Below, piece after piece: positions 1 to 63,605 of a DNA stretch of 64,000 nt (position 1 is the stretch's first letter; every line of letters starts with the position of its first letter). A model generated the notes under the pieces. It saw only the letters and a list, made by a program, of their open reading frames with translations, did not search any database and had not been told where the DNA came from. Source of the stretch: Sulfuricystis thermophila (lineage in GTDB: Bacteria; Pseudomonadota; Gammaproteobacteria; Burkholderiales; Rhodocyclaceae); assembly GCF_004323595.1 (NCBI RefSeq), contig NZ_AP019373.1:1178001-1242000 (forward strand). Direction: 5' to 3'. The position numbers were made by a program, and so were the translations under genes.

Positions 1-119
1 ATGGCGACGATGCGTACTCGCTCGCCCACTTGGGCCATCATCAGTGGATAGGCCTTTTCGCCAATGGCTTGCCGTCCCGCCAGCGCCGAGTTTGGGTTTC
101 GTGCCATCGTGGCATCCAT
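1..119 (-). CDS. FeoA-like iron transport protein, N-terminal fragment (runs off the left edge)
   Basis: A minus-strand reading frame starts with ATG at 119, two bases after the stop codon of the outer-membrane protein gene, and stays open to the window edge (39 codons). Residues around 27-39 read PLMMAQVGERVRIVA, which resembles the start of the small SH3-like FeoA domain that assists the FeoB ferrous-iron permease. The first 20 residues are unusual for FeoA and contain a copy of the 25-bp interspersed repeat (residues about 8-17). The tight spacing to the gene upstream and the iron genes behind it support an iron-uptake role. Only the N-terminus is visible, so the family call is moderate and feoB cannot be checked. 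Confidence 0.5.
   Translation of the reverse strand, partial: MDATMARNPNSALAGRQAIGEKAYPLMMAQVGERVRIVA
69..93 (-). repeat. 25-bp interspersed repeat, copy 1
   Basis: This copy matches the family core TCGGCGCTGGCGGGACGGC read on the minus strand. It lies inside the FeoA-like frame and is translated as NSALAGRQ, a frame not used by the other copies. Confidence 0.8.
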
Positions 120-121
120 GC

Positions 122-820
122 TCAGAACTCCCAGGCAAAGCCGACCTGCCCGAAACTGCGGTCGTTGCCCCGCCCGATGGCGCCGGAGAGCTTGAAGCCT
201 TCGAAAACCTCATAGCGCAGGCCGAGCGCCTTGTCGGGGCGAACATGTTCTTCGCCGAAGATTTCCGCCGTCAGTTTCAACTTTTCGGCGAGCGGAAACT
301 CGTAACCCAGTCCCCAGGTGCCGACACGATCGCTCTCACCTTGCGCCTCGATACGCTTGCTGCCGAGGTTGAAGTGGGCGACCTGTCCATCCGCGAAGCG
401 ATGGCTGGCAAGCCCCGTCAAGGCATATTCGCGCTCGGTGTATTTCTCGGCATTGGCGCGATCGTTGATCCGCGTGCGACCGAGATCGAGCTTGACACCG
501 AGTGACCAGCCGGTCTCATTCTGAAGCGGCACCCATTTGAATCCGATGCCGCTACCGGTCATGCGGGTCGAAGGATCGGGTTCGCGGTCATTGGCGCGTG
601 AGACGGCAAGACCGATTTCCAAATGCTCGAGCGGCGCGAAGCCGAATACTGCTTCGCCGCCGCGCGTCTTGTGATCGCGCGCGAGCGCCCCCTCGATCTT
701 CAGGCCACCGGCACCGAGTGTGCCGGCGTCATCGACCTGCATCGGCGGTTCGGCGAATGCGGACAAACAGGGTAGGAGGAAAACGAGACTACTGCGACGG
801 ATCGTGCGTACGAAAGACAT
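122..820 (-). CDS. Putative outer-membrane beta-barrel protein
   Basis: The 232-residue product begins with a signal peptide (RRSSLVFLLPCLSAFAE; cleavage expected near residue 23). Alternating polar and hydrophobic stretches follow, and the chain ends in phenylalanine (GQVGFAWEF), the usual C-terminal signal for insertion by the BAM machinery. No named family is recognised. A strong ribosome-binding site (GGAGG) sits 8 bases before the ATG. It lies between hemP and a FeoA-like gene on the same strand, so a role as a porin-like component of an iron-responsive locus is reasonable but inferred. Confidence 0.7.
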   Translation of the reverse strand: MSFVRTIRRSSLVFLLPCLSAFAEPPMQVDDAGTLGAGGLKIEGALARDHKTRGGEAVFGFAPLEHLEIGLAVSRANDREPDPSTRMTGSGIGFKWVPLQNETGWSLGVKLDLGRTRINDRANAEKYTEREYALTGLASHRFADGQVAHFNLGSKRIEAQGESDRVGTWGLGYEFPLAEKLKLTAEIFGEEHVRPDKALGLRYEVFEGFKLSGAIGRGNDRSFGQVGFAWEF

Positions 821-896: not shown

Positions 897-1082
897 TTAC
901 TTGGTCAGGATCAGCTTGTTCTGGCGCGTGAGCCGCAAGCGGTAGATTTCACCTTCGTGTCGGATGAGGATCTCTTTGCGCCCGGCGAAAAGCTCACGGC
1001 TGTCGATATATCCCTCCCACGCCCGGTTGCCTTGGTGCGGGAGGGATTTTCCGCGCGGCTCATTTCCATCCGACGCGGTCAT
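897..1082 (-). CDS. hemP: Hemin uptake protein HemP
   Basis: The small basic protein (61 residues from the ATG at 1082) ends in YRLRLTRQNKLILTK, the hallmark C-terminus of the HemP/HmuP family. Members are Fur-controlled and are needed for normal expression or function of heme-uptake receptors. The chosen start overlaps the 3' end of the iron-binding protein gene by 23 bases. A longer start at 1121 is possible but would add 13 atypical residues. No heme receptor is visible here, so its partner must lie elsewhere or be the barrel protein downstream. Confidence 0.8.
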   Translation of the reverse strand: MTASDGNEPRGKSLPHQGNRAWEGYIDSRELFAGRKEILIRHEGEIYRLRLTRQNKLILTK

Positions 1083-2079: not shown

Positions 2080-2124
2080 GACGAAACTCCCGATGGTTGA
2101 TGGAAAAAGAATGGAACAGCAAAC

Positions 2125-2143
2125 GAGAACAATTATCAATAAC
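2125..2143. promoter_or_regulatory. Candidate Fur box
   Basis: The sequence GAGAACAATTATCAATAAC agrees with the 19-bp Fur consensus at about 13 positions by eye, including the central ATTATC-like part. It lies between the start of the minus-strand iron-binding protein gene and the plus-strand oxidoreductase gene, where it could repress the iron cluster. Binding has not been shown. Confidence 0.5.
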
Positions 2144-2221
2144 ATTGGCGGCAGTGTCAAGCAAGCGAGTGCATCCCACAGGTCGATGGCTATAATCGAC
2201 CGCACAAAAAAGGAGTGGAGC

Positions 2222-3214: not shown

Positions 3215-3233
3215 CAACCAGAGGGAAAGGAAA

Positions 3234-5129: not shown

Positions 5130-5132
5130 ATC

Positions 5133-5165
5133 CTGGCGGGACGGCGACTTGTGCCGTCCCGCCAG
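5133..5165 (+). terminator. Perfect 13-bp hairpin after prpE, built from inverted repeat copies
   Basis: CTGGCGGGACGGC at 5133-5145 pairs perfectly with GCCGTCCCGCCAG at 5153-5165 around a 7-base loop. It lies 3 bases after the prpE stop and so probably ends or stabilises that transcript. There is no T-run directly behind it. The right arm is part of a full copy of the 25-bp repeat and the left arm is a truncated inverted copy. Confidence 0.6.
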
Positions 5166-5175
5166 CGCCGAATTT
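5151..5175 (-). repeat. 25-bp interspersed repeat, copy 2
   Basis: This intergenic copy on the minus strand is paired head to head with a truncated copy at 5133-5150, forming the palindrome after prpE. Confidence 0.85.
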
Positions 5176-5201
5176 GCAGGGCTGCCCGGGGCGTGGTGCG
5201 T

Positions 5202-12039: not shown

Positions 12040-14366
12040 ACATCGAAATCGACGGCAAGCCGCTGCAGGTCAATCCGGGCACGACGGTCTTCGAGGCCGC
12101 GCGCTCTGCCGGCATTTACATCCCGCATTTCTGCTATCACAAGAAGCTCTCGATTGCTGCAAACTGCCGCATGTGCCTGGTGCAGGTCGAGAAGGCGCCC
12201 AAGCCGATGCCGGCCTGCGCGACCGTCGTCACCGAAGGCATGAAGGTGTTTACGCACTCGCCGCTGGCCGTCAAGGCGCAGCGCGATGTGATGGAGTTTT
12301 TGCTGATCAACCATCCGCTCGACTGCCCGATCTGTGACCAGGGCGGCGAATGCCAGCTGCAGGACCTCGCGGTCGGCTATGGCGGCGGGCACGCGCGCTT
12401 CCAGGAAGAAAAGCGCGTCGTCAGCAACAAAGACCTCGGTCCGCTGGTGGCGACCGACATGACGCGTTGCATCAACTGCACGCGCTGTGTGCGCTTCACC
12501 CAGGAGATCGCGGGTTACATGGAGCTCGGCCAGGCCTATCGCGGCGATCGCGCCGAGATCATGCCTTTCCTCGGCCAGACGCTCGATTCGGAACTTTCTG
12601 GCAACGTCATCGATCTCTGTCCGGTCGGGGCGCTGACCTCGAAGCCGTTCCGCTTTGCGGCGCGCACTTGGGAGCTGTCGCGGCGCAAGTCGGTCAGTCC
12701 GCATGACGGCCTGGGCAGCAATCTGATCGTGCAGGTGCTGCATGACAAGGTGAAACGCGTGTTGCCGCGCGAAAACGAGGCGATCAACGAGTGCTGGCTC
12801 TCCGACAAGGAACGTTTTTCCTATGAGGCGCTCAACGGCGAGGAACGACTGACGCGCCCGATGGTGAAGCAGGGCGGCCAGTGGCGCGAAGTCGAGTGGA
12901 ACGCCGCGCTCGATTACGCCGCGCACGCATTGCGCGACATCGCCCGCGATCACGGCGCCGACTCGCTCGGCGCCCTCGTCAGCCCCCATGCGACGTTGGA
13001 AGAAATGGCATTGGCGGCGAAGCTGATGCGCGGACTGGGTTCCGACAATCTCGATTTCCGCCTGCGCCAGAGCGATTTCAGCCTCGATGGCCAGCGAGCC
13101 GGTATCCCTTGGCTGGGCATGAAGATCGCCGAGATCGGCGCGCTCGATCGCGTGCTGGTGGTCGGCAGTTTCCTGCGCAAGGATCATCCGCTGATCGCCC
13201 AGCGCCTGCGCCAGAGCGCGAAGAAGGGCGCCCAGGTGTCGATCCTGCATGCGGCCGACGACGAGCTGTTCATCAAGCTCTTCGCCAAATCGATCGCCGC
13301 GCCGGCGCAGCTGCCGACGCTGTTCGCCGAAGTCGTCAAGGCGGTAGCTGAACTCAAGAATGCTCCGCTCGGTGCCGAGTTCGCAAAAGTCGGCGCTGGT
13401 GAGACGGCACGCAAGATCGCTGCCAGCCTCGTCTCCGGCGCGAACGTCGGCATCCTGCTCGGCAACTTCGCCCAGCAGCATCCGCAGTCAGCGACGCTCG
13501 AACGTCTCGCCCAGCAGCTCGCCGGACTGCTCGGCGCGAAATGGGGTTTCCTCGGTGAGGCGGCCAACAGTGTCGGCGGCTATGTGGCCGGCGCCCATCC
13601 CCGCCAGGGAGGGCTGAATGCCGCGCGACTGATCGCCGAGCCGCGCAAAGCCTATTTGCTGCTCGGCGCCGAACCCGAACTCGACTGCGCCGATGGTGCG
13701 GCGGCGTTGGCCGCGTTGCGTCAAGCGAAGAGTGTCATCGTGCTCTCGCCGTTCAAGTCGCAGGCGGCATTCGAGTATGCCGACTGCCTGCTGCCCGTCG
13801 CACCGTTTACCGAGACTTCCGGCACCTTCGTCAATACCGAGGGCCGCGCGCAGAGTTTCCATGCCGTCTGCAAGCCCTTGGGCGAGACACGGCCGGCCTG
13901 GAAGGTGCTGCGCGTGCTGGGCAATCTGCTGGATCTCGCCGGCTTCGATTACGCGAGTTCGGAAGAGGTGCGCAATGAAGTGCTCGGCGGCGCAGACGAA
14001 TTCGTCACCGGTCTCGACAATGCCGTCAAACCAGGTACCTATGAGTTTTCCGCCGTCAGCCAAGGGCTGCAGCGCATCGCCGATGTGCCGATCCATTTCG
14101 CCGATCCGTTGGTGCGCCGCGCGCCGAGCCTCTTGGCCACCCATGATGCCGCGCCGCCGACGGCGCGCATGAACGCCACGACGCTGGCGAAACTGGGACT
14201 GGCCGACGGAGACGGAGTGAAAGTCGGCGCTGGCGGGACGGCAGTCGATCTCGTCGCCCGGCTCGATGCCGGCGTGCCGGACGAGTGCGTGCGTATCGCC
14301 GCGGCCCATGCGACGACGGTGGCGCTCGGTCCGCTGTTCGGCACCCTGAACGTGGAGCGCGCATGA
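12033..14366 (+). CDS. nuoG: NADH-quinone oxidoreductase subunit G
   Basis: The 777-residue subunit carries several clusters of the NADH module. The N-terminal ferredoxin part shows [15 protein letters not shown], then the N5-type motif [14 protein letters not shown] and the [10 protein letters not shown] set. A molybdopterin-oxidoreductase-like domain follows without cofactor role. Two copies of the 25-bp repeat are translated inside it, as KVGAGETA at about residues 452-459 and KVGAGGTA at about 730-737, both in the weakly conserved C-terminal half. Its stop overlaps the nuoH start (ATGA). Confidence 0.96.
13386..13410 (+). repeat. 25-bp interspersed repeat, copy 3 (in nuoG)
   Basis: The plus-strand copy is read in the frame giving KVGAGETA. 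It differs from the core by T and A substitutions in the second half. Confidence 0.85.
14220..14244 (+). repeat. 25-bp interspersed repeat, copy 4 (in nuoG)
   Basis: The plus-strand copy matches the core exactly and is translated as KVGAGGTA, 48 codons before the end of nuoG. Confidence 0.9.
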
Positions 14367-25205: not shown

Positions 25206-25230
25206 AAACTCGGCGCTGGTGGCACGGCAT
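25206..25230 (+). repeat. 25-bp interspersed repeat, copy 5 (intergenic)
   Basis: This plus-strand copy lies between the divergent metY and dinG starts, so it may overlap one of the two promoters. It has two or three changes from the core. Confidence 0.8.
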
Positions 25231-25253: not shown

Positions 25254-27236
25254 ATGCCCGCCCAAGCCGATCTGGAGAAGATTTTCGCCGCCGACGGCCC
25301 GTTCGATCGGGCCATCAGCGGCTATCGGCCGCGCCGGCAGCAGATCGCGATGGCGCGCGATGTGCAGGCCGCCATCGCGGCCAATCAGGTGCTGGTCGCC
25401 GAAGCCGGCACCGGCACCGGCAAGACTTTCGCCTATCTGGTCCCGGCGCTGCTCTCGGGCGGCAAGGTGATCATTTCTACCGGTACCAAGACGCTGCAGG
25501 ATCAGCTCTTCAACCGCGACCTGCCGACGGTGCGCGAGGCGCTCGGCGTGTCGGCGAGCATCGCACTGCTGAAGGGCCGCGCCAACTATGTCTGCCACCA
25601 TCACCTGGAACGCGCGCTCTCCGCCGGCAAGCTCGCCTCGCGCGCCGAGGTTGCGCATCTGCACAAGATCGCGCGTTTCGCCAAGATCACGGCGACGGGC
25701 GACAAGGCCGAATGTGCCGATGTGCCGGAAGATTCCGGCGCCTGGGGCTTGGCCACCTCGACGCGCGAGAACTGCCTCGGCCAGGAATGCGCCTATGTCA
25801 AGGAATGCTTTGTCATCGCTGCGCGGCGCGAGGCGCTCGCCGCCGATGTCGTCGTCGTCAATCACCACCTTTTCTTTGCCGACGTGATGCTCAAGGACGA
25901 CGGCATGGGTGAGCTCTTGCCTGCCTGCAACACGGTGATCTTCGACGAGGCGCACCAGTTGCCCGAAGTGGCGGGTCTCTTTTTCGGCGAGAGTGTCGGC
26001 ACGGGACAGATCCTCGATCTGGCGCGCGATGCGAAGCTCGAAGGCATGGCCGCCGCGAAGGATTACCCGCCCTTGCAGGAAGCGGCGCAGACGCTGGAAA
26101 AGGCGGCCAAGGATCTGCGCCTGGCTTTCAAGCATGAAGGCCGTCTCGCAATCGCGCAATGGCTGCAACATCCACAGGCCATCGCGGCGCTGGAGCATCT
26201 GCAAAAGAGGCTCGATGAGCTCGGCCGCCATCTCGAAGCCCAGGCGGGACGCTCGGAAGGACTGGCCAACTGCCTGCGGCGCTGCGGGGAGCTGATCCTG
26301 TCGTTGCGGAACTGGCAGACGGCGAAAGTCGGCGCTGACGGGACGGCACCGGCTGATGTGGCGGAGAGGGATGAGCAGAGCGCCGTGCGCTGGGTCGAAG
26401 TGACGACCTATGGCGCCACGTTCAATCTCACGCCATTGTCGGTCGCCCCGCTGTTCAGGAAGCAGCTCGAGGGCCATCCGCGCGCCTGGATTTTCACCTC
26501 CGCCACGCTCGCCGTCGGCGAGGATTTTTCCCACTACCGCAATGCCTTGGGCCTCGCCGAGGCAATGACCGCTCGCTGGGACAGCCCGTTCGACTATCCG
26601 AACCACGCCTTGCTCTATTGTCCAACCGGCATGCCGGATCCGAACCATGCCGATTATTGCGATGCGGTGGTCGAAGCCTGCTGGCCGGCGATCCGGGCAG
26701 CAGGCGGCCGGGCTTTCGTGCTCTGCACGAGCTTGCGCGCGATGCGCCGCATCCACGAGCTGCTGGCCTCGCGCATCGCGGCGGCACGGCTCGAGATGCC
26801 GCTCCTGCTGCAGGGACAGCGCCCCAAAGCGGAACTGCTCGATACTTTCCGGCGACTGGGCAATGCGGTGCTGGTGGCGAGCCAGAGTTTCTGGGAAGGC
26901 GTCGATGTGCCGGGCGAGGCGCTGTCGCTGGTGGTCATCGACAAGCTGCCGTTCGCGCCGCCCGACGATCCGGTGCTCGCGGCGCGCATCGACATGCTCA
27001 AGCGTCAGGGCCGCAACGCCTTCTTCGAGGTGCAGCTGCCGCGCGCGGTGATCAGCATGAAGCAGGGTGCCGGCCGGCTGATCCGCTCGGAAACCGACCG
27101 TGGTGTGCTGATGGTCTGCGATCCACGCCTGGTCGACAAACCTTACGGCCGGCGCATCTGGCAGAGCCTGCCGCCGATGCGGCGCACGCGCGAGATCGGT
27201 GAGGTCGCGGCGTTTTTCGAAAATCCGGAGAACTGA
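25254..27236 (+). CDS. dinG: ATP-dependent DNA helicase, DinG/YoaA family
   Basis: The 660-residue superfamily 2 helicase has Walker A ([13 protein letters not shown], about residue 50), a DEAH box ([11 protein letters not shown], about residue 229) and C-terminal motif VI with [14 protein letters not shown]. Cysteines in NYVCHHH and in [13 protein letters not shown] supply the [4Fe-4S] cluster typical of XPD-like helicases. It probably unwinds damaged or R-looped DNA. A repeat copy is translated as KVGADGTA at about residues 358-365, between conserved motifs. The start at 25254 ([11 protein letters not shown]) is favoured over an ATG seven codons earlier. sugE begins right after its stop. 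Confidence 0.9.
26325..26349 (+). repeat. 25-bp interspersed repeat, copy 6 (in dinG)
   Basis: The plus-strand copy is read as KVGADGTA, followed by an acidic linker ([11 protein letters not shown]) that looks dispensable. Confidence 0.85.
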
Positions 27237-27704: not shown

Positions 27705-27725
27705 GATTCGGAATACACTCGGCGC

Positions 27726-28814
27726 ATGAAACTCTCCGACCTTCCTGCCGACCTGTTGGCGGCGCGCCCACACCTGTTCTCGCCTGCAAGCGTTGCCGTG
27801 ACGGCGGCGGATCACGCACGCATGCGCGAAGTGATCTTGGCGGTGGAGGAGGTCGTCGCGCTGAAACTCGGCGCTGACGGCACGGCACCTTCCGCCAGCG
27901 GCGTCTTCATGGGCTACGACTTCCATCTGACGCCCGAGGGCCCACGACTGATCGAGATCAACACCAATGCCGGCGGCGGCCTCTTGGCGGCATTGCAGGC
28001 CGAACGCGACGACGTGCTGGCCGCCTATGTCGAGATGTTCCGCAGCGAATGCGGCAAGCGCGAACTGCGCATGGTCGCTATCGTCGACGAAACGCCTGAG
28101 CAGCAATATCTCTACCCGGAGCTCGTCGGCTTCCGGCAGCTCTTCGAAGCGCACGGCATCCGCGCGGCGATCTGCGCGCCCGAGGCGCTGATGATCTGTC
28201 ATGGCGGACTGTGGTATTCCGACGGCGTGACCGAGACGCGCATCGATCTCGTCTATAACCGGCTGACCGATTTCACGCTCGATTTGCCCGAGTCGGTGGC
28301 GCTACGGCTCGCCTGGCTGCACGAAGACACCGTGGTGACGCCGAACCCGCAGATCCATGCCCTGTATGCGGACAAGAAGAACCTCGTCGCGCTGACCGAT
28401 CCGGCCCAGTTGGCCGAGTGGGGGGTGCAGGAACAGACGCGGCGCATATTGATGAATGGCATTCCGCGCACCGAGGCGGTGACCGTAGCGTGCGCCGAAG
28501 ACCTCTGGAACCGCCGCCGCGGGCTGTTCTTCAAGCCGGCGATGGGCTTCGGTTCGAAGGGCGCCTATCGCGGCGACAAGCTCACCAAGCGCGTCTTCGC
28601 CGAAATCCTCGCCGGCGATTACGTCGCGCAGGCGTATGTGCCGCCCTCGACCGTGCCCGTCGAAGTCGATGGCCAGATGAGCGAGCTCAAGGCGGACATC
28701 CGCAACTATGTCTATCGAGGCACCGTGCAACTGGTCACCGCCCGGCTCTATCAGGGCCAGACGACGAACTTCCGTACCCCGGGTGGCGGTTTCGCGAAGG
28801 TGATCGAACGATGA
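27726..28814 (+). CDS. Unknown protein with ATP-grasp-like features
   Basis: The 362-residue protein has EINTNAGGGLLAAL near residues 79-92, a central FKPAMGFGSKGAYRG segment (about 272-286) and an ADIRNYVYRG segment near the C-terminus. Lysine-glycine-rich nucleotide loops and paired acidic residues of this kind recall ATP-grasp ligases such as glutathione synthetase, but the assignment is tentative. A repeat copy is translated as KLGADGTA at about residues 47-54. The start at 27726 lies 22 bases after the family A element. Its stop overlaps the mobB start (ATGA), so it probably belongs to the molybdopterin operon. Confidence 0.7.
   Translation: MKLSDLPADLLAARPHLFSPASVAVTAADHARMREVILAVEEVVALKLGADGTAPSASGVFMGYDFHLTPEGPRLIEINTNAGGGLLAALQAERDDVLAAYVEMFRSECGKRELRMVAIVDETPEQQYLYPELVGFRQLFEAHGIRAAICAPEALMICHGGLWYSDGVTETRIDLVYNRLTDFTLDLPESVALRLAWLHEDTVVTPNPQIHALYADKKNLVALTDPAQLAEWGVQEQTRRILMNGIPRTEAVTVACAEDLWNRRRGLFFKPAMGFGSKGAYRGDKLTKRVFAEILAGDYVAQAYVPPSTVPVEVDGQMSELKADIRNYVYRGTVQLVTARLYQGQTTNFRTPGGGFAKVIER
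27864..27888 (+). repeat. 25-bp interspersed repeat, copy 7
   Basis: The plus-strand copy is read as KLGADGTA inside the ATP-grasp-like gene, next to a loop preceding MGYDFHL. Confidence 0.85.
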
Positions 28815-29308: not shown

Positions 29309-30522
29309 GTTACGAACAAGCCCTCGAACACTTGCTCGCCGCCGCCACCCCGGTCACGGAAATCCGGCGGCTGCCGCTGGCCGCGGTGCGCGGCCGCTTT
29401 CTCGCCGAACCGCTCATCTCCACGGTGATGGTGCCGCCGCTCGACAACAGTGCGATGGACGGCTATGCCGTGCGCTGTGCCGATGTGCCGCAGGCAGGCG
29501 TCATCCTGCCGGTATCGCAACGCATTCCCGCCGGCAGCGTGGGTGCGCCCTTGCAGCCCGGCACCGCAGCGCGCATCTTCACCGGCGCGCCGATCCCGCC
29601 CGGCGCCGATGCGGTGGTGATGCAGGAATTTTCCGAACACGTGCCGGATGGCAAGGTGATCATCAATCAGGCGCCGAAAGCAGGGCAGAACATCCGCCGC
29701 GCCGGCGAGGACATCGCTGCGGGAAGCGAAATCCTGCCGGCGGGCGCACGCCTCGGCCCGGCCGAAATCGGCCTGGCCGCCTCGGTCGGCGTGGCCGAGC
29801 TGCCAGTGCGGCGGCGGCTGCGCGTCGCGCTATTGTCGACGGGCGACGAGCTCACCGAGCCCGGCCAGCCGCTGCCCGCCGGCGGCATCTACAACTCGAA
29901 CCGCCACTTCCTGCGCGCGCTGTTCGAAACCTTCGGCTGTGCCGTCACCGATGCCGGCCACGTGCCCGATACGCTGGAGGCCACACGCGCGGCACTGCGC
30001 GAAGCCGCCGCAGCACACGATCTGATCGTCACCTCGGGTGGCGTCTCGGTCGGCGAGGAGGATCACGTCAAACCCGCCGTCGAGGCGGAAGGCGCGTTGT
30101 CGCTGTGGAAGATCGCCATCAAGCCGGGCAAGCCGCTCGCGTTCGGCCATGTGCGCAAAGTCGGCGCCGAGGGAACGGCAGAGTCCACCGCCTTCATCGG
30201 TCTGCCGGGCAATCCAGTGTCCTGCTTCGTGACCTTTCTGCTCTTCTTGCGCCCCTATCTGCTCAAGCGCATGGGCGCCGCGGTCGTCGTGCCGGTCGCG
30301 CGCGAGCTCGTTTCCGCCTCCGCCTGGACGAAACCCGAAGACCGGCGCAGCTTCCTGCGGGCGCGGATCGCTGCCGATGGCCGCGTCGAGTTGTATCCTA
30401 ATCAAAGTTCCGGCGTGCTGACTTCCTGCGTCTGGGCCGACGGCCTGGTCGACACCCCAGCCCAGCAGACCTTCGCGCCGGGCGACACGGTGCGTTTTCT
30501 CGCTTTCTCCGACCTGTTGTGA
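29302..30522 (+). CDS. moeA: Molybdopterin molybdenumtransferase
   Basis: The 406-residue MoeA inserts molybdate into adenylylated molybdopterin. Signatures include PPLDNSAMDGYAVR (about residues 45-58), TGAPIPPGADAVVMQE, LSTGDEL and TSGGVSVGEEDHVK. A diverged repeat copy (KVGAEGTA, about residues 286-293) lies before FIGLPGNPVS. It is the third gene of the cofactor operon. Confidence 0.95.
   Translation: MLSYEQALEHLLAAATPVTEIRRLPLAAVRGRFLAEPLISTVMVPPLDNSAMDGYAVRCADVPQAGVILPVSQRIPAGSVGAPLQPGTAARIFTGAPIPPGADAVVMQEFSEHVPDGKVIINQAPKAGQNIRRAGEDIAAGSEILPAGARLGPAEIGLAASVGVAELPVRRRLRVALLSTGDELTEPGQPLPAGGIYNSNRHFLRALFETFGCAVTDAGHVPDTLEATRAALREAAAAHDLIVTSGGVSVGEEDHVKPAVEAEGALSLWKIAIKPGKPLAFGHVRKVGAEGTAESTAFIGLPGNPVSCFVTFLLFLRPYLLKRMGAAVVVPVARELVSASAWTKPEDRRSFLRARIAADGRVELYPNQSSGVLTSCVWADGLVDTPAQQTFAPGDTVRFLAFSDLL
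30157..30181 (+). repeat. 25-bp interspersed repeat, copy 8 (in moeA)
   Basis: This is the most diverged copy (about four changes in the second half), translated as KVGAEGTA. Confidence 0.6.
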
Positions 30523-30773: not shown

Positions 30774-31265
30774 ATGTCCGAAGTCAGCGTCCAGCAAGCC
30801 GATTTCGACGTCGGTTCTGAAATCGCGGCATTGTCGGCCGACGACCCGGAAGCCGGCGCGGTGGCGAGCTTCGTCGGCCTCGTGCGCGCCGACAAGCTCT
30901 GTGCGCCGGAAGTCGGCGCTGGCGGCACGGCACAGGTCGCCGCGATGACCCTCGAATACTATCCGGGCATGACCGAAGCCGCGCTCGCCGAGATCGTCGC
31001 CCAGGCCAAGGCCCGCTGGCAGCTGAAGCGGGTACGGGTGATCCATCGCGTCGGCCGGCTGCTGCCTTCTGAGCACATCGTCTTCGTGGGTGTGAGCTCG
31101 TCGCATCGCCACGACGCCTTCGCTGCCTGCGAATTCATCATGGATTACCTGAAGACCCGCGCGCCGTTCTGGAAAAAGGAAGAAACCCCGGCCGGCAGCC
31201 GCTGGGTCGATGCGCGCGAGAGCGACGATCGGGCCGCCGCCCGTTGGGAAGGGAAGGAGACGTAG
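30774..31265 (+). CDS. moaE: Molybdopterin synthase catalytic subunit
   Basis: The 163-residue large subunit converts precursor Z to molybdopterin. Conserved parts are FVGLVR, LEYYPGMTE, HRVGRLLPSEHIVFV and the C-terminal KTRAPFWKKE with the catalytic lysines. A repeat copy encodes EVGAGGTA at about residues 46-53, in a loop that is longer than usual for MoaE. It converges with the phasin gene, one base apart. Confidence 0.95.
   Translation: MSEVSVQQADFDVGSEIAALSADDPEAGAVASFVGLVRADKLCAPEVGAGGTAQVAAMTLEYYPGMTEAALAEIVAQAKARWQLKRVRVIHRVGRLLPSEHIVFVGVSSSHRHDAFAACEFIMDYLKTRAPFWKKEETPAGSRWVDARESDDRAAARWEGKET
30909..30933 (+). repeat. 25-bp interspersed repeat, copy 9 (in moaE)
   Basis: The plus-strand copy is read as EVGAGGTA in an expanded surface loop between the first helix and MTLEYYPGMTE. 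Confidence 0.85.
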
Positions 31266-41524: not shown

Positions 41525-41664
41525 GCGCGCCTCTCTTTCGGTGATGGTGCTCGATCGCAACCCTCGTTCGAAAATGGCATCGGTCAAGATGCAAACCTGG
41601 TCGCGATAACGAGCATTTTTTGACAATGATCGATCTGTTGCGGTTCCTGCCGCGGCAGCTTGAA

Positions 41665-41896: not shown

Positions 41897-41926
41897 TACG
41901 CGTAGTGCCATTTTTGGAGACGAGCC

Positions 41927-44509
<2,583 letters not shown>

Positions 44510-49668: not shown

Positions 49669-50816
49669 TCTAGCGCGTCGAGTCCGTAGATGTCCGGGAA
49701 GAAAGAGACTTTTCCCGGGTCATCTGCGACGGCGGTCAGGTAAACGATGATCACCGGCACGGGTTCGGGCAGTTTCACGATGCGCGTCTGGCCGCTTTGC
49801 ATCGCTTCGAGGATGCGTGGCTCATCCCAGGACGGATCGTCGTTCAGGACGAAACGCGCCAGGGCGACCGGCTCTTCGACACGGATGCAGCCATGGCTGA
49901 AGTCACGCCGCGCCTTGGCGAACAGGCGCACGGCTGGCGTGTGGTGCATGTAGATGTTGTCATGGTTCGGGAAAGCGAATTTGATGCCGCCCAAGGCGTT
50001 TTTCGGCCCGGGCCGCTGGCGCAGGTGCAGTCTGCCGCGCAATACCGCATCGAGGTTTTCTTCCGTCAGCGTCGTGATGGCTCCGCCGTGGCCGTCATGG
50101 AATTCGAAATCCTCCGCGACGAAATGAGCGGGGTCGCGGCGCAGCCGCGGCACCAGCTCCTTGCGTGCGATCGACGGCGGCACGTTCCAGTAGGGCCTGA
50201 ATTCGAGGTAGCGCATCTCCTCGACGAACAGCGGGGTGGGCGTCTTGTTGCGCGCGCTGCCGACGATGATCTTCATGCGGAGTTTCTCTTCGTTGCCCGC
50301 GTAGGCGCGCAAGACGAATTCCGGCACATTGACGAGCAGGTGGCGCGGCGCGAAGGGCAGTTGGTGCAGGCGTTCGAGGTTGAGCTCGATCTGCCGCAGC
50401 CGTCTGGCGGGTGGAACGTTCAAGGCCGCGAGGGTGTCCTTGCCGATCACACCGTCGGTTTCCAGCCCATGGCGTTTCTGGAAGGCGGTGACGGCGGCGA
50501 CGAGCTCGCCTTCGTAGCGGGCGGGAGGCGGTATGGCGGGCGAGAGGTCGCCGAGCGCGGCGAGCCGTCGCACCAGAATGGGCAGGCCGGCCCAGGGTTT
50601 GCCGGGTACCAGTTTGCGGGCACCCAAGGGTGGCAGGGGTTCGTTCCAGGCGGCCTGAACGGCCGGATCGGCGGCCAGTCGTCGGTAATGCGCCAGCGCG
50701 GCTTCGAGCCCGGCCTGCAGCGGATGCGCCAAGGCCAGGGTTGGCATCAGCAGTCCGGCCAGCCACACCAGCAGCCGACCGGCCACGCGAAGTCGGCGCT
50801 GGCGGGACGGCACCAT
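49665..50816 (-). CDS. L,D-transpeptidase, YcbB/LdtD type
   Basis: The protein has a signal peptide, a peptidoglycan-binding domain (VTAFQKRHGLETDGVIGKDTLAAL split near residues 105-130) and a YkuD catalytic domain with the cysteine in SHGCIRVEEP near residue 314. It forms 3-3 cross-links in peptidoglycan. At 383 residues it is shorter than E. coli LdtD. The ATG at 50816 falls next to repeat copy 12, which would encode VPSRQRRL at the extreme N-terminus. A GTG at 50783 (VAGRLLVWLAGL) gives a normal signal peptide and may be the real start. Confidence 0.9.
   Translation of the reverse strand: MVPSRQRRLRVAGRLLVWLAGLLMPTLALAHPLQAGLEAALAHYRRLAADPAVQAAWNEPLPPLGARKLVPGKPWAGLPILVRRLAALGDLSPAIPPPARYEGELVAAVTAFQKRHGLETDGVIGKDTLAALNVPPARRLRQIELNLERLHQLPFAPRHLLVNVPEFVLRAYAGNEEKLRMKIIVGSARNKTPTPLFVEEMRYLEFRPYWNVPPSIARKELVPRLRRDPAHFVAEDFEFHDGHGGAITTLTEENLDAVLRGRLHLRQRPGPKNALGGIKFAFPNHDNIYMHHTPAVRLFAKARRDFSHGCIRVEEPVALARFVLNDDPSWDEPRILEAMQSGQTRIVKLPEPVPVIIVYLTAVADDPGKVSFFPDIYGLDALE
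50789..50813 (+). repeat. 25-bp interspersed repeat, copy 12 (start of the L,D-transpeptidase)
   Basis: The copy matches the core exactly. It lies antisense to the gene, directly after the first ATG, or just upstream of the gene if the GTG start is used. Confidence 0.9.
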
Positions 50817-56214: not shown

Positions 56215-57226
56215 TGCCGGCGGGGGATAGATCATCGGTGGCGAAGACCGGCGCGTCGGCATAGCGATAGTTCTTTTCCTGCGAGCGCTGGTAGAGCGGG
56301 TCGTAATGCTTCTCCAGCAGCGCCTCGACCAGCGTGCGGAAGTCGCCGGCCTGGATGAGCGCCTGCCAGTGCGCCAGTGTCTCATTGCTCTGCAGGCCGC
56401 GCAGACGGTCGAGTTGCTCGGCAAGCCAGTCGGGGCGGGCAAGGAAGTAGTCGTAGTCCCGCAGCAGAAAGTCGGCTCTGGTGGCACGGCACGCCTCGAT
56501 TTTGAGGCAGGGGGCGGCGCGCATCGCAGCGACCAAGGCATCCGGCAGCTGCAGCTTGCCGATGCGGCGGCTTTCGGCCTCGACGAACACCGGCCGCGCC
56601 GCATCGAAGCCTTCGAGCGCGCTCCATAGCCGTGTCTCGAACATCTTCTGCGACGGCTGGGAGGCTTCCGGCAGCACGCCCAGCACCGAGCCTTTGTGGG
56701 CGGCGAGCGCTTCGAGGTGCAGCACCTGGGCGCCGAGTTCGGCGAGCGCCTCGAGCAGACGGCTTTTCGCACTGCCGGTGGGGCCGGAGACGACGCGAAA
56801 GGAAAGCGTTGCCGGAAGTTCTGCGAGGCGCGCGACGACATGCCGTCGCCAGCCCTTGTAGCCGCCTTCGAGGCGGTGCGCGTCCCAGCCGATCTCGCGC
56901 AGGATGTGGGTGAAAGCGCCGGAGCGCTGGCCGCCGCGCCAGCAATAGACGAGCGGCCGCCAGCTCTTCGGCTTGGCGAGGAAATGCGCTTCGATCAGGG
57001 CGGCGATGTTGCGGGCGACCAGCACGGCGCCGAGTTTCTTCGCCTCGAAGGGGGAGACCTGCTTATAGAGCGTGCCGATGCGGGCACGCTCTTCGTTCGA
57101 GAGCACCGGGCAGCTGATCGCGCCGGGGATGTGATCCTCGGCGAATTCCGCTGGCGAACGCGCGTCGAGGATGGCGTCGAATTCGGCCAGTTGTGCTACC
57201 GTTGCGACCCCTTTGGTTTTCATCAT
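56180..57226 (-). CDS. mnmH: tRNA 2-selenouridine synthase
   Basis: The 348-residue protein joins a rhodanese domain (active cysteine in [11 protein letters not shown], about residue 95) to a P-loop domain ([12 protein letters not shown], about 145). It swaps sulfur for selenium in 2-thiouridine of the tRNA wobble base, using selenophosphate from SelD. A repeat copy is translated as CRATRADF near residues 245-252. The start codon is 4 bases from that of the divergent selD, so the two promoters lie inside each other's genes. Confidence 0.93.
56468..56492 (+). repeat. 25-bp interspersed repeat, copy 13 (in mnmH)
   Basis: The copy is antisense to mnmH, with about three changes, and is translated as CRATRADF. 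Confidence 0.75.
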
Positions 57227-57230
57227 CGTC

Positions 57231-58268
57231 ATGACCCTCAAGCTCACCCAATTCTCCCACGGCGGCGGCTGCGGCTGCAAAATCGCGCCGGCCGTGCTCT
57301 CGCGCCTGTTGGCCGCATCGCCGCTGCAAAGCGTGCCTGCCGATCTCCTGGTCGGGGTCGAGACGGCCGATGATGCGGCCGTCTATCGTCTGAACGACAG
57401 CCAGGCGGTGGTGGCGACGACCGATTTCTTCATGCCGATCGTCGACGATCCGTTCGACTTCGGCCGCATCGCCGCGACCAATGCCCTTTCGGATGTCTAT
57501 GCCATGGGCGGCCGGCCGCTCTTCGCGCTGGCGGTGGTCGGCATGCCGCTCGACAAGCTGCCGGAGGACGTGATCCGCCAGATTCTCGCCGGTGGCGAGA
57601 GTATTTGCGCCGAGGCCGGCATTCCGATCGCCGGCGGGCATTCGATCGATGCGCCCGAGCCGATCTATGGCCTCGTCGGCATCGGGCTCGTCCATCCCCA
57701 GCGAGTCAAGAAGAATGCCGGCGCAAAAGCGGGCGATGCGCTGATCCTCGGCAAGCCTTTGGGCATCGGCATTCTCTCCGCCGCGCTCAAAAAAGATGCG
57801 CTTTCGGATGAGGGCTATGCCGAGATGATCCGCTGGACGACGAAGCTCAACGTCACCGGCGCGCTGCTGGCCGAGCTGCCCGGCGTGCATGCGGTCACCG
57901 ATGTGACGGGCTTCGGGCTGGCCGGTCATCTGTTGGAGATCTGCCGCGGCTCGGGGGTTGCTGCACAGGTGGAATTTGCCCGACTGCCACTGATCGAGGA
58001 GGCGGTGCGGCATGTGCGCGCGGGCACATTCACCGGCGCCTCCGGGCGCAACTGGGCGAGCTACGGCAGTGCCGTCCTGCCAGCGCCGACTTTCGAAGAG
58101 TGGCAGCAGAAGATCGTCACCGACCCGCAAACGAGCGGCGGGCTGCTGGTCGCCTGCGCGCCGGAGAGTGCGGATGAGGTCTTGGCGGCTTTCCGCGCCG
58201 ACGGCTTCGAGCGGGCAGCGGTGATCGGCGCGTTTGCCGCTGGCGCGCCTTGCGTCACGGTCGTTTGA
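57231..58268 (+). CDS. selD: Selenophosphate synthetase
   Basis: The 345-residue enzyme makes selenophosphate from selenide and ATP. The N-terminal motif [12 protein letters not shown] carries the active-site cysteine (the position that is selenocysteine in some species) and the following lysine. [10 protein letters not shown] is the metal-binding part. Repeat copy 14 encodes AVLPAPTF at about residues 281-288. It supplies mnmH; no selA or selB is visible here. Confidence 0.95.
58069..58093 (-). repeat. 25-bp interspersed repeat, copy 14 (in selD)
   Basis: The copy lies antisense to the core orientation and is read as AVLPAPTF just before [16 protein letters not shown]. Confidence 0.85.
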
Positions 58269-60609: not shown

Positions 60610-61972
60610 GAATCCTCCGTGCGACCGCGATACCGCTCCTGACTGCGCCTTCGAGCGTGGCGGGGTAATCGCCGGCGACGTAATCGCCGGCCAGCCAGAG
60701 ATTCGGGGAGGCGGTGGTGGCGGAAGGGCGCGCCAGGTTGGGCGTGCAGGCGAAGGTGGCGCGCTTTTCCTCGATCACGCGAATCTTCTTCGGCAGCACC
60801 AGACCCGGCAAGAGCGGCGCGAGCTGGCGATGGATCGCCCAGCCGAGCTGCCCGTGATCGAGCACCTGCCAGGGGCCGGCCCCACTGATGACGACCGAAA
60901 GAAGCCCCGCCGGCCCGCCCAACTGACCACGGTCGAACACCCATTGGCCGTGGCCGTTGGCCAGGCCGAGCATCGGAAAGGAAAGACGCACCGATTCCGG
61001 ATAGAGGAGGTAGATCGTGGCGATCGGCTGCCAAGACAGTTCCGGCAGCGCGATCTGCGGCGCCAGCGCCGGCAGGTGCCAGGGCGCGACGGCCAGCACG
61101 CGATGCTCGAAGTCGGCCAGCGTTTCGAGGCTGTCGATGCGTGTCGAGCGATGCACCTTGCCGCCGCGCGCTTCGATGAACCGCGCCGCCGGTTCCGGAA
61201 ACAGGCTGGAGAGATCGGTTGCCGGCAGCAAGAGGTCGGCTGCGCTGCGGTTTGCAGCCAGCGTGTCACGCAACACGTTGAGCAAGACCTGCGCCGAGGC
61301 TTCCCGTATCGGGGTGTTGAGCGCCGCGAGGCACAGCGGCCCCCAGAGAAAGCGGCGCAACACCGGCGGCTGGTTGGCGATCAGCCGACTGGCCGGGATG
61401 TCGCGGGGCAGGCGGAAGCGAATCTTGCTGAGCGCCCGCATCAAGCGCATCGCGGCGAATTTTTCTTGCCAGCGCAGCCCTTGCGACATCGCGAGTGCCC
61501 AAGCGAGGTGCAGCGGTGCGGGCAGCGGCAGGGCGGGCGCGGCGAGGCGGAATTCGCGGGGGAACTCCAGATAAAGCGGGAATCGGGCGAGTGCCGTCCT
61601 GCCAGCGCCGACTTTGTCGATCAGCCGCAGCGTTTCGCGGTAGGCGCCGACGAGGATGTGTTGGCCGTTATCGACAGTGAGAGCTTGTGAAAAATTCTGC
61701 TGCGCGGCCCGCTGGCTGCGTTGCGCGGTGCTCGCTCCCTCGCCTAACTCCATGTTATGTCTCGGTCGCTGCGCTCCGGGCGCCTTGCCATCAGCCCGCT
61801 CGCGACGAATTTTTTCACAAGCTCTAAGTCCATCGAGCGTCACCGCGCGGGCCCGGCCGCCCAGCGTGCGCGCGGCTTCGAAGACCTCGACGGCCACACC
61901 GGCATCGGCGAGCTCGACGGCGCAGGCGAGGCCGGCCCAGCCGCCGCCGACGACGGCTACGCGGCGAGCCAT
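60599..61972 (-). CDS. hpnE: Hydroxysqualene dehydroxylase, carrying an in-frame element insertion
   Basis: This FAD-dependent amine-oxidase-fold enzyme converts hydroxysqualene to squalene. It has the dinucleotide motif VAVVGGGWAGLACAVELA, then GGRARAV, and DNGQHILVGAYRET. Between TLDGL and TVDNGQ there are 49 extra residues (about 49-97), exactly the translation of a family A element. Repeat copy 15 adds KVGAGRTA at about 120-127. The reading frame is intact (457 residues). The C-terminal FAD part (LWLAGDYVAGDYPATLEGAV) is complete. Whether the enzyme works is not visible. The start overlaps hpnD by 16 bases. Confidence 0.9.
   Translation of the reverse strand: MARRVAVVGGGWAGLACAVELADAGVAVEVFEAARTLGGRARAVTLDGLRACEKIRRERADGKAPGAQRPRHNMELGEGASTAQRSQRAAQQNFSQALTVDNGQHILVGAYRETLRLIDKVGAGRTALARFPLYLEFPREFRLAAPALPLPAPLHLAWALAMSQGLRWQEKFAAMRLMRALSKIRFRLPRDIPASRLIANQPPVLRRFLWGPLCLAALNTPIREASAQVLLNVLRDTLAANRSAADLLLPATDLSSLFPEPAARFIEARGGKVHRSTRIDSLETLADFEHRVLAVAPWHLPALAPQIALPELSWQPIATIYLLYPESVRLSFPMLGLANGHGQWVFDRGQLGGPAGLLSVVISGAGPWQVLDHGQLGWAIHRQLAPLLPGLVLPKKIRVIEEKRATFACTPNLARPSATTASPNLWLAGDYVAGDYPATLEGAVRSGIAVARRILSS
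61591..61615 (-). repeat. 25-bp interspersed repeat, copy 15 (in hpnE)
   Basis: The copy is read with the gene as KVGAGRTA, a short distance after the element insertion. Confidence 0.88.
61680..61825. mobile_element. Short inverted-repeat element, family A, copy A2, inside hpnE
   Basis: This 146-bp element has terminal repeats AGAGCTTGTGAAAAATTC and its inverse, like copy A1, and the same internal blocks. It is open in the hpnE frame and adds a net 147 bases, so the frame is kept. Confidence 0.88.
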
Positions 61973-62790
61973 GTCTTCAACGCCAGCCAAGCCTTACGCG
62001 CCGGCGGCAGGAAGGTGCGGCGGTCGAGGACCAGAAAGCCGTCCCGTTCGATTTCGTCGAGCAGGGTCTGGTAGATTGCCGCCATCACGAGCCCGGGGCG
62101 CTGCGCCCTGCGGTCGAGGGCGGGCAGCAGCGCAAAGGCGCGGGCGTAGTGTTCGCGCGCCCGCTTTGCCTGGAACGTCATCAGCGCCTTGAATTCCGGG
62201 GTATGACGGGCGGCGAGGATGTCCCGTTCGGCGACGCCGTAACGCGCCAATTCGTCCTGCGGCAGGTAGATGCGCCCACGCCGCGCATCTTCGCCGACAT
62301 CGCGGATGATGTTGGTGAGCTGGAAGGCGATTCCCAGCGCATGGGCATATTTGAGCGTCTGCCGGTCTCGATAGCCGAAGATCTCGGCCGAGAGGAGGCC
62401 CACGACGCCGGCGACGCGATGGCAGTAGAGTTGCAGCCGGGCGAAGTCCGGGTAGCGCTCCAGCTCGAGATCCATGCGCATGCCGTCGATGATTTCGGCG
62501 AGCTGCTCCACGGGCAGGTCGAAACGTTTTCGGGCCTGGGCCAGTGCCAGGGTGACCGGATGGCTCGGCTGGCCGCCATCGAGGCTTTCGATCTCCGTGC
62601 GCCACCAGTCGAGCTTGGCGCTGGCCACCGCCGGCTCGTGGCATTCATCCACCACGTCATCGACTTCGCGGCAGAAGGCATACAGCGCATTCAAAGCCTG
62701 ACGGCGGGGCGCATCGAGCAGCCGGAACCCTGCCGTGAAGCTCGACGCGCTGGCTTTGACCTTCTCGGCGCAGTAATCGTCGGGGCTCAT
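61957..62790 (-). CDS. hpnD: Presqualene diphosphate synthase
   Basis: The 277-residue prenyl synthase converts two farnesyl diphosphates to presqualene diphosphate. It has the aspartate-rich motifs REVDDVVDE (about residues 40-48) and the second one in IIRDVGEDARRGRIYLP (about 165-181). The start at 62790 overlaps the hpnC stop by 4 bases (ATGA). Confidence 0.93.
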   Translation of the reverse strand: MSPDDYCAEKVKASASSFTAGFRLLDAPRRQALNALYAFCREVDDVVDECHEPAVASAKLDWWRTEIESLDGGQPSHPVTLALAQARKRFDLPVEQLAEIIDGMRMDLELERYPDFARLQLYCHRVAGVVGLLSAEIFGYRDRQTLKYAHALGIAFQLTNIIRDVGEDARRGRIYLPQDELARYGVAERDILAARHTPEFKALMTFQAKRAREHYARAFALLPALDRRAQRPGLVMAAIYQTLLDEIERDGFLVLDRRTFLPPARKAWLALKTWLAA

Positions 62791-63605
62791 GCGAATGCCG
62801 CCTTGAGGAATAGACGCGGCCAGTCCATGGCGCCGAGCAGCGGACGGCGCCGGAAAACATCGCAGCCGGCGGCTTCGATTTTGTCGAGGATCGCCAGCCC
62901 GCCGGCGATGATGGCGCGGATTTCCATGCCGATGCGGCCGGAAAGACTGCGGCCCAGTGCGGCGCCGCTCATCATCAGCGCCCGGGCGCGCTCGACCTGG
63001 AAACCCATCAGGGCGCGAAACTCGGCGCTGGCGAGACGGCACCGGAGCATCTCCTCGCTGACGCCGAAACGCGCCATTTCGTCCTGAGGCAAGTAGATGC
63101 GGCCGCGCGGCCCCTTGTCGAGATCGATGCCGACATCCTGCCAATGGTTGACGAGCTGCAGCGCGGAGCAGATCTTGTCCGAATGTTGCAGATTCTCGGC
63201 CGTGGCCGCATCGAACAGGTGGAGCAGCAGCCGGCCAATCGGATTCGCCGAGCGGCGACAGTAATCGAGCAATTCGTCGTAACTGGCGTAGCGATCTTTG
63301 ACGACATCCTGCTCGAAAGCCTCGAGCAGGTCGTAAAACGGCGCCAAAGGCAGAGCGTGGGCGGCGATGTGGCCGGCCAGCCGCTGGAAGAGCGGATGCG
63401 TGGCGGGCTCGTCGCGGCCGATGCGGTCGAGTTCGGCGCGGTAAGCTGCCAACCGGCGCAGGCGCTCGGCGGCCGGAAGACCGCCTTCGTCGGCGAAATC
63501 ATCCGCCGAACGTGCGAAGGCATAGATGGCCGTCACCGCCGGCCGCAGCCGGGCCGGCAGCAACAGCGAAGCAACGGGAAAATTCTCGTAGTGATCGACC
63601 GACAT
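62787..63605 (-). CDS. hpnC: Hydroxysqualene synthase
   Basis: The 272-residue protein is the HpnC partner that converts presqualene diphosphate to hydroxysqualene. Motifs are FARSADDFADEG (about 30-41) and HWQDVGIDLDKGPRGRIYLP (about 152-171). Repeat copy 16 encodes CRLASAEF at about 190-197, replacing a variable stretch before RALMGFQVERA. It is the first gene of the squalene operon; squalene-hopene cyclase is not in the window. Confidence 0.93.
   Translation of the reverse strand: MSVDHYENFPVASLLLPARLRPAVTAIYAFARSADDFADEGGLPAAERLRRLAAYRAELDRIGRDEPATHPLFQRLAGHIAAHALPLAPFYDLLEAFEQDVVKDRYASYDELLDYCRRSANPIGRLLLHLFDAATAENLQHSDKICSALQLVNHWQDVGIDLDKGPRGRIYLPQDEMARFGVSEEMLRCRLASAEFRALMGFQVERARALMMSGAALGRSLSGRIGMEIRAIIAGGLAILDKIEAAGCDVFRRRPLLGAMDWPRLFLKAAFA
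63018..63042 (+). repeat. 25-bp interspersed repeat, copy 16 (in hpnC)
   Basis: The copy lies antisense to hpnC and is translated as CRLASAEF, the same reading frame as in mnmH. Confidence 0.85.

What the first reader, a model, noticed from the sequence alone, without database searches (positions are those of the whole stretch)
69..63042. A 25-bp interspersed repeat occurs 16 times and is translated inside at least 13 genes in at least five reading frames
Copies start at 69, 5151, 13386, 14220, 25206, 26325, 27864, 30157, 30909, 35181, 43478, 50789, 56468, 58069, 61591 and 63018. The common core is TCGGCGCTGGCGGGACGGC preceded by AAA plus G or C and followed by AC. Most copies differ from it at 0-4 positions, and all were found by eye. 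Fourteen are in coding sequence. None of the six frames of the core contains a stop codon. It is read as KVGAGGTA (8 cases), [28 protein letters not shown] and NSALAGRQ. Copies sit in linkers or variable loops (REC-EAL linker, ClpB middle-domain junction, MoaE loop). Unrelated genes sharing nearly the same DNA in different frames rule out protein-level homology. This looks like a DNA-level signal (for example an uptake-sequence analogue) or a very small mobile unit similar in behaviour to Rickettsia palindromic elements. I know of no description of this one.
Basis: seen in the sequence. Interest (0 to 1): 0.9.

Follow-up and report, generated by a model that had tools for sequence, protein, structure and literature searches.

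The report
Possible third bacterial DNA-uptake signal family
A 25-letter DNA word scattered through the genes of this unnamed bacterium behaves like the 'take up my own kind's DNA' tags known from two other bacterial families, and its relatives use differently spelled versions of it, but uptake itself has not been tested.

Summary
The core occurs 462 times (<=2 mismatches) in the 2.74-Mb genome, equally on both strands, against 2 for the reversed word. All 16 listed window copies are there.

It does not behave like an inserted element. Against an 88%-identical colinear relative, 41 of 55 aligned copies are shared and 9 differ by substitutions alone; the other 5 lie in gapped alignments, none a clean 25-bp empty site. 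Conserved blocks diverge 2.3 times less than flanks.

The decisive find is dialects. The motif is bipartite, AAA(G/C)TC-n12-ACGGC. This frame is enriched in 66 of 395 family genomes (10 of 68 genera), and letters inside or beside it differ by lineage: GGCGCTG, GGTGCTG, GACGCT, AGCCGT, AGTC; ends ACGGCA, ACGGCG, GCGGCG, ACGGTG. One ClpB loop holds a recognisable copy in 21 of 26 carriers, in the lineage's own spelling where that was determined.

This matches DNA uptake sequences, described as known from Neisseriaceae and Pasteurellaceae only (PMC12616744). Uptake and receptor are untested; no gene examined tracks the motif.

The parts
69..93 (-). copy 1, core 0 mismatches, outside called genes
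5151..5175 (-). copy 2, core 0 mismatches, between convergent genes; with a partial opposite copy at 5127 it forms a 14-bp hairpin (fold z -4.3)
13386..13410 (+). copy 3, 2 mismatches, in NuoG-like gene 12033-14366, read AKVGAGETA
14220..14244 (+). copy 4, 0 mismatches, same NuoG-like gene, read VKVGAGGTA
25206..25230 (+). copy 5, 2 mismatches, outside called genes
26325..26349 (+). copy 6, 1 mismatch, in helicase-type gene 25254-27236; relative G002 has a 5-mismatch version at the same place, same length
27864..27888 (+). copy 7, 2 mismatches, in gene 27822-28814 (no Pfam family at 1e-6)
30157..30181 (+). copy 8, 4 mismatches in the core, AAAG and ACGGCA intact, in MoeA 29302-30522; G003, G007, G013 and G017 have better copies at the site
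30909..30933 (+). copy 9, 1 mismatch, MoaE loop
35181..35205 (+). copy 10, 3 mismatches, antisense in REC-EAL gene 34409-35602, between the two domains, read PPAPSF
43478..43502 (+). copy 11, 1 mismatch, ClpB loop; the orthologous loop carries other dialects in other lineages
50789..50813 (+). copy 12, 0 mismatches, between called genes 49665-50786 and 50819-53515
56468..56492 (+). copy 13, 3 mismatches, AAA and ACGGCAC intact, antisense in rhodanese-domain gene 56180-57232; same-length replacement in G006, G021, G028
58069..58093 (-). copy 14, 1 mismatch, antisense in AIRS-family gene 57231-58268, read LPAPTF; same-length replacement in G006
61591..61615 (-). copy 15, 1 mismatch, in amine-oxidase-like gene 60599-61972, read KVGAGRTA
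63018..63042 (+). copy 16, 1 mismatch, antisense in squalene/phytoene-synthase-family gene 62787-63605, read CRLASAEF; G002 has a same-length 6-mismatch version

Best explanation
The repeat is a DNA uptake sequence (or works like one): a 23-25 bp bipartite word, AAA-(G/C)-TC + lineage-specific middle + ACGGC, that a surface DNA receptor of the type IV pilus competence machinery would bind, so that DNA of the same kind is taken up preferentially. SHOWN: hundreds of strand-symmetric copies; constraint on the same DNA positions across hosts and frames; gain and loss mostly by substitution; lineage dialects in an almost unchanged frame; different dialects at one orthologous site; spacing more even than random; near-complete absence in one species nested among carriers and in another of a carrier genus. 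INFERRED: copies spread because DNA that happens to carry a good copy is taken up and recombined more often (drive through biased uptake), and are tolerated where the encoded peptide is harmless or just after stop codons. GUESSED: the receptor; the ComP_DUS-family minor pilin in the own genome's pilin cluster is the leading candidate.
For: Copy number and strand balance: 462 vs 2 control, 229/233. Logo of 89 copies has sharp ends, no conservation outside about 25 bp. Substitution, not insertion: 41 of 55 aligned copies shared, 9 differ without gaps, 4 with gaps of 1-9 bp, 1 with a gap >=10 bp, intergenic; 20 of 75 copies not aligned. Conserved blocks 48 changes in 828 sites vs flanks 646 in 4784. 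Dialects in a fixed frame; frame enriched (>=40) in 66 of 395 family genomes and 0 of 194 genomes of other families of the order. ClpB loop: recognisable copy in 21 of 26 carriers printed, 0 of 11 non-carriers printed. Loss: G006 sits inside the carrier genus in the ClpB tree; G210 keeps a decayed ClpB copy. Spacing CV 0.66, p 5e-5. 32 of 78 copies lie in the 14% outside genes, 19 of these 32 within 20 bp after a stop codon vs 12% expected. ComEC in 91 of 101 genomes, own included; ComP_DUS pilin in the own genome. A ~12-kb tract 96-99.8% identical between species otherwise about 89% alike indicates recent homologous exchange. Weak: zero copies in the 20-kb prophage-like stretch L106; by Poisson about 0.7 of 20 stretches would be empty anyway.
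Against: No uptake, binding or transformation data. ComEC, GspH-family and ComP_DUS pilins are as present in genomes without the motif, and the one genome of 30 without a ComP_DUS hit, G102, is a carrier; the carrier G018 (83% complete) shows no ComEC. Density (about 1 per 4-6 kb) is several times lower than in Neisseria. Inverted pairs, common in DUS genomes, are not enriched: 4 of 35 intergenic copies vs 8% at random places. ComEA model: of 12 carriers 1 over the cut-off, 9 below it, 2 none. Three carriers (G102, G103, G040) have no ClpB copy. The MoaE loop looks like an insertion.
Confidence: 0.7

Rival explanations
1. A binding site of an intracellular DNA protein (chromosome organisation, segregation, recombination hot spot of the Chi kind, or a self-recognition mark for a defence system), with selection at each site rather than uptake-driven spread.
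For: Even spacing, constraint on DNA positions and dialects would also follow from a co-evolving intracellular protein. No uptake data, and no competence gene tested tracks the motif.
Against: No strand preference in total (229/233); forward copies about equally dense in the first 1.17 Mb and the rest, if the capped list is the first 100 forward sites (inferred). Chi and KOPS are recalled as strand-biased along the replichore; the origin was not located. Patchy presence in 10 of 68 genera with losses inside genera suits a dispensable trait.
Confidence: 0.18
2. A very small mobile element inserted into genes, like Rickettsia palindromic elements or REP/REPIN units moved by a RAYT transposase.
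For: The MoaE loop is longer where the motif is present; longer palindromic units built of inverted partial copies exist.
Against: Coding differences between close relatives are gap-free, with 4-6-mismatch versions in the relative; no fixed insert length; one site carries different dialects; no Y1-type transposase in 8 of 12 carriers searched, own genome included; three single copies folded no better than most shuffles (z -1.4 to 0.0).
Confidence: 0.05
3. Protein-level repeat: a flexible GAGGTA linker peptide that spread by selection on the protein.
For: 22 of 46 coding copies read VGAGGTA.
Against: Five frames on both strands are used, 32 of 78 copies are outside called genes, and codon-shuffled genes keep 0.35 sites at <=1 mismatch vs 36 seen.
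Confidence: 0.01
4. An overrepresented word kept by a mutational or repair bias or by an unknown DNA modification system, without a function as signal.
For: Overrepresented words of unclear function are known in general (recalled: HIP1).
Against: A bipartite 25-bp word with a free middle, dialects that change single fixed positions, and near-complete losses are hard to get from mutation bias.
Confidence: 0.06

Closest known systems
DNA uptake sequence (DUS) of Neisseriaceae and its dialects
   Same: Many strand-symmetric copies in and between genes, lineage dialects differing at fixed positions, permissive placement, related genomes lacking it, minority copies of foreign dialects (PMC3630211 sections 6 and 11 read; here).
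   Different: 25-bp bipartite word instead of 10-12 bp continuous; the DUS core CTG is not kept at one place in the AGTC and AGCCGT dialects; inverted pairs not enriched; 294-668 copies at <=2 mismatches in the same-genus carriers rather than about 940-5900 exact copies; uptake not shown. The ACGGCA end equals the reverse complement of TGCCGT in AT-DUS, which may be chance.
Uptake signal sequence (USS) of Pasteurellaceae
   Same: Discontinuous word with AT and GC-rich blocks (PMC12616744 passages); starts AAAGT like the published AAAGTGCGGT (PMC2346458, part 1 of 3 read); copies in genes in both orientations.
   Different: Different bacterial class, different core, spacing and block order; the resemblance of the start may be chance.
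Rickettsia palindromic elements
   Same: Short repeat translated inside unrelated genes in several frames (recalled).
   Different: Those are insertions of about 100-150 bp (recalled); here close relatives differ by substitution.
REP/REPIN sequences with RAYT
   Same: Short GC-rich word, some inverted pairs between genes (recalled for REP; here).
   Different: 46 of 78 copies are inside genes; no Y1 transposase in 8 of 12 carriers.

Membership tests
Uptake sequences (DUS/USS type) | Enhances uptake of DNA by competent cells | not testable with these tools
   needs a transformation or uptake assay
Uptake sequences (DUS/USS type) | Hundreds to thousands of copies, both strands, far above chance | tested here: met
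Uptake sequences (DUS/USS type) | Copies arise and change in place, not by insertion | tested here: met
   (of 14 differing sites 9 gap-free, 4 with gaps of 1-9 bp, 1 larger); MoaE loop an exception
Uptake sequences (DUS/USS type) | Lineage dialects with a conserved inner core | tested here: met
   AAA, TC and CGG kept in the eight consensus spellings
Uptake sequences (DUS/USS type) | Enriched outside genes and near gene ends, often as inverted-pair terminators | tested here: inconclusive
   outside genes and after stops: enriched; inverted pairs: not enriched, though one window pair folds well
Uptake sequences (DUS/USS type) | Competence machinery present | tested here: inconclusive
   ComEC in the own genome, pilin cluster; ComEA in the own genome only below cut-off; DprA, PilQ and others not tested
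Neisseriaceae DUS proper | Core 5'-CTG-3' in all dialects | tested here: not met
   the AAAGTCAGTC-n8-ACGGCG and AAAGTCAGCCGT dialects lack CTG at the place where the others have it
Neisseriaceae DUS proper | ComP receptor | tested here: inconclusive
   ComP_DUS-family pilin present in 29 of 30 genomes, carriers and non-carriers; the one miss is a carrier
Rickettsia palindromic elements | insertion leaving a clean empty site in relatives | tested here: not met
   none among 55 aligned copies
REP/RAYT | Y1-type transposase in the genome | tested here: not met
   none in the own genome nor in 7 more of 12 carriers; present in 4
Chi-like sites | strand bias along the replichore | tested here: inconclusive
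   none seen, but the origin was not located and the list is capped

The most novel reading that the evidence does not exclude
A third, previously undescribed family of uptake-sequence bacteria (Rhodocyclaceae), with a bipartite 'fixed frame plus changeable word' code: AAA-G-TC and CGG stay, while the middle and last letters switch together across the whole genome when the receptor changes. Eight consensus spellings are visible, which gives a natural series for reading out how a pilin recognises a DNA word.
Probability: 0.63. Interest if true: 0.92.

Novelty: new variant of a known kind. Interest (0 to 1): 0.85.

Why it matters
[quoted passage not shown] A third family would show that self-tagging of DNA is wider than those two families, would help test whether such systems arise repeatedly or share deep roots, and offers many dialects and natural losses in one family. 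Judging by record titles the nearest named relatives come largely from environmental samples (inference). The words would also mark which lineages have exchanged DNA.

Tried and rejected
Insertion by a mobile unit: rejected as the general mode. Protein-level repeat: rejected. ComEC, GspH-family pilin, ComP_DUS pilin and ComEA as genes that track the motif: none does in the genomes searched (101, 36: 61, 49: 30, 72: 16). De novo 11-mer search in samples of G006 (120 kb), G021 (120 kb) and G036 (100 kb) showed no uptake-like word among the top words printed (up to 14 each; G021's look like a short tandem repeat); in G028 it revealed a dialect, so G028, first counted as a non-carrier, is a carrier. 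Inverted-pair enrichment: not found. Copies outside the usable alignment (20 of 75 and 15 of 49) were left out of the comparison. In one search three of 40 rows are outside both counts (QR_Bin.30, L014 as a double of G102, and G170 with 27 frame matches and a degenerate loop copy). Literature: sequence strings 0 papers, 'DNA uptake sequence' with Rhodocyclaceae 0, open-access library only. Structure prediction was not run.
Full report
WHAT WAS CHECKED. All 16 listed copies are present at the stated positions. In the whole genome (one contig, 2,737,315 bases) the 19-base core occurs 462 times with at most two mismatches, 229 forward and 233 reverse, against 2 for the word read backwards. In 464 kb of own-genome sequence (window plus 20 evenly spaced 20-kb stretches) the counts are 25, 37, 16, 12 for 0-3 mismatches, then 32 at 4, against 0, 0, 1, 0 and 12 for the reversed word. 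Shuffling synonymous codons within each of 431 called genes leaves on average 0, 0.35 and 3.6 sites at zero, one and two mismatches, where 9, 27 and 10 are seen (20 shuffles). The count is not a product of codon use or GC content; three-mismatch coding sites (9 seen, 11.85 shuffled) are mostly chance.

ANATOMY. The logo of 89 copies runs AAA - G/C - TCGGCGCTG - GCGGG (loose) - ACGGCA - c, with no conservation outside about 25 bp. Of 78 copies with <=2 mismatches, 46 are in called genes and 32 outside, although only 14% of placements fall outside genes; 19 of the 32 lie within 20 bp after a stop codon where 12% would be expected. Coding copies use five frames very unevenly, 22/13/7/3/1/0, preferring the Gly-Ala and Pro-Ala readings (chi-square p 6e-9). 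In 364 contiguous kb the spacing is more even than random (75 copies, CV 0.66, p 5e-5). The sampled 20-kb stretch L106, without a copy, has phage-type genes (terminase, D5 primase, serine recombinase; 10 of its 29 called genes scanned); one empty stretch in 20 is itself no surprise (about 0.7 expected by Poisson), so this is weak support. Three single copies folded no better than most shuffles; the inverted pair at 5127-5175 did (z -4.3). My gene calls come from a simple codon model, so coding counts are approximate.

INSERTION OR REPLACEMENT. G002 is colinear and 88.3% identical over 313 kb. Of 75 own copies (<=2 mismatches) 20 fell outside the usable alignment; of the 55 others, 41 are shared, 9 differ by substitutions with no gap, 4 have gaps of 1-9 bp and 1 has a larger gap, which lies in poorly aligned intergenic sequence. 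From the G002 side: 49 copies, 15 unaligned, 33 shared, 1 with a small gap. No clean 25-bp empty site was seen. At 46 well-aligned sites the AAA block diverges 8.7%, TCGGCGCTG 6.3% and ACGGCA 3.6%, the loose middle 18%, the G/C position 30% and the flanks 16% and 11%; conserved blocks against flanks is 48/828 (5.8%) versus 646/4784 (13.5%), p 2e-11. With more distant relatives, sites in well-conserved protein stretches show same-length replacement (56468, 58069), but loops vary in length, and the MoaE loop is about 12 residues longer with the motif. Insertion is thus not the general mode, though single loops may have grown.

DIALECTS. The core is found in hundreds of copies in 17 of 18 other same-genus genomes (294-668; G006 has 1), and in three other genera among the 100 relatives (G019 484, G026 617, G055 485; G040 has 29, G058 13, the rest 0-9). 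Two more surprises followed. First, those three genera differ from the own genome at fixed positions: ACGGCG instead of ACGGCA and G fixed before TC, and one of them has GGTGCTG for GGCGCTG. Second, G028, first taken as free of the repeat, carries AAAGTCAGTC-n8-ACGGCG, with the two ends at the same distance (28 AAAGTCAGTC words in 180 kb, 23 of them followed by exact ACGGCG at that place). Searching the bare frame AAA(G/C)TC-n12-ACGGC in 395 genomes of the family gave 66 genomes with 40 or more matches, in 10 of 68 genera (16/19, 18/22, 1/1, 14/16, 1/2, 1/1, 1/1, 4/4, 9/9 and 1/6 of the genomes examined in each); no genome of any other genus exceeds 20. Of 194 genomes from other families of the order none reaches 40; G475 has 21, several spelled like known dialects and clustered, as if acquired. 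Further spellings: AAAGTCGACGCT(G/C)-n5-ACGGC (G102), AAAGTCAGCCGT-n6-ACGGC (G204) (majority of the places listed); within the own genus GCGGCG (G017, majority of 25 copies in 120 kb) and ACGGTG (G005, 8 of 10 copies in 55 kb). The frame search misses dialects that alter the frame, as G017 (12 matches) and G005 (30) show although they hold 346 and 385 core copies, so 66 is a lower bound. G040 has few copies in mixed spellings.

ONE SITE AS A ROSETTA STONE. The ClpB loop before LLRTQ was printed for 40 rows: 26 carriers, 11 non-carriers and 3 left out. In 21 of 26 carriers it holds a recognisable copy (the AAA block is broken or shifted in G001, G121 and G126). Where I had determined the spelling of the genome or its genus, the copy agrees: the T of G026, the GCGGCG of G017, the ACGGCA of G000 and G002, AAAGTCAGTC...ACGGCG in three genomes of the G028 genus, ACGGCG in G055, G157 and the G019 genus; for most other same-genus genomes the spelling was not worked out separately. 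Two carriers have a degenerate copy (G204, G169) and three none (G103, G102, G040). None of the 11 non-carriers has it; G210, a near-free species of the G028 genus, keeps a decayed version. Different spellings at one orthologous site need a process that pulls old sites to the current spelling, or repeated gain at a favoured place.

MECHANISM. This is the pattern described for the DNA uptake sequences of Neisseriaceae: dialects conserved within species, related genomes without any, permissive placement, minority copies of foreign dialects (PMC3630211, abstract and sections 6 and 11 read). Biased uptake of word-bearing fragments followed by recombination would explain accumulation by substitution and spelling switches after a receptor change. 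A sign of recombination between species is direct: twelve 1-kb windows between about 30 and 43 kb are 96-99.8% identical to G002, where the median over 316 windows is 89%. The own genome has ComEC and, in a cluster with GspH-family, PilW and PilY1 proteins, a 143-residue pilin matching Pfam ComP_DUS (1e-10). That pilin family is present in 29 of 30 genomes tested, carriers or not, and the one without a hit (G102) is a carrier; the sequence matches among solved structures are other pilins and pilin-like proteins (18 listed), so it is a candidate only.

AGAINST. No uptake experiment. No gene tested tracks the motif. Inverted pairs are not enriched, copy density is lower than in Neisseria, and the ComEA model is met over its cut-off in 1 of 12 carriers, below it in 9, and not at all in 2. 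An intracellular DNA-binding protein that co-evolves with its site could give constraint, even spacing and dialects too; the patchy presence and near-complete losses speak against an essential role but do not settle it.

MEMBERSHIP. It works like an uptake sequence; it is not Neisserial DUS (the CTG core is not kept), nor USS. The resemblance of the ACGGCA end to the reverse complement of TGCCGT in AT-DUS and of the AAAGT start to the USS AAAGTGCGGT (PMC2346458, first of three parts read) is noted and may be chance.

NOVELTY. Searches for the sequence strings gave 0 papers and 'DNA uptake sequence' with Rhodocyclaceae 0. In the listings of wider searches I recognised no title on uptake sequences of a further family; apart from the three papers named here they were not read. 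PMC12616744 (passages read) calls the two families the only ones known. The library is open access only.

Confidence was lowered slightly (0.72 to 0.70; novel case 0.65 to 0.63) because the prophage point is weaker than first written and the one genome without a ComP_DUS hit is a carrier.

Noticed in passing
window 31785-31998, 41660-41875; 27553-27706, 61675-61828, 23100-23224: At least two families of longer repeats (about 216 bp and about 150 bp) with many further copies in the genome sample; they look like non-autonomous mobile elements.
   Followed up: no
L097 9412, 12396, 16978; L101 18003; L103 6016; L143 5240: Units of about 63-82 bp, partly in tandem, made of inverted partial and full copies of the 25-mer that could fold into long hairpins.
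   Followed up: partly
window about 30000-43000: Twelve 1-kb windows 96-99.8% identical to relative G002 while the median is 89%: a recent homologous exchange of roughly 12 kb. Copies 30157, 30909 and 35181 lie in it.
   Followed up: partly
L106 (G000 1840001-1860000): Prophage-like stretch with two ParB-N/DNA-methylase proteins, terminase, D5 primase and serine recombinase, free of the motif.
   Followed up: partly
G475 contigs C45 and C67: A genome of another family carries 21 frame matches, several spelled like Rhodocyclaceae dialects and clustered on few contigs, possibly acquired DNA.
   Followed up: no
L211-L215 (G040): A separate overrepresented palindrome-like word TTCTATAGAAG in G040.
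   Followed up: no
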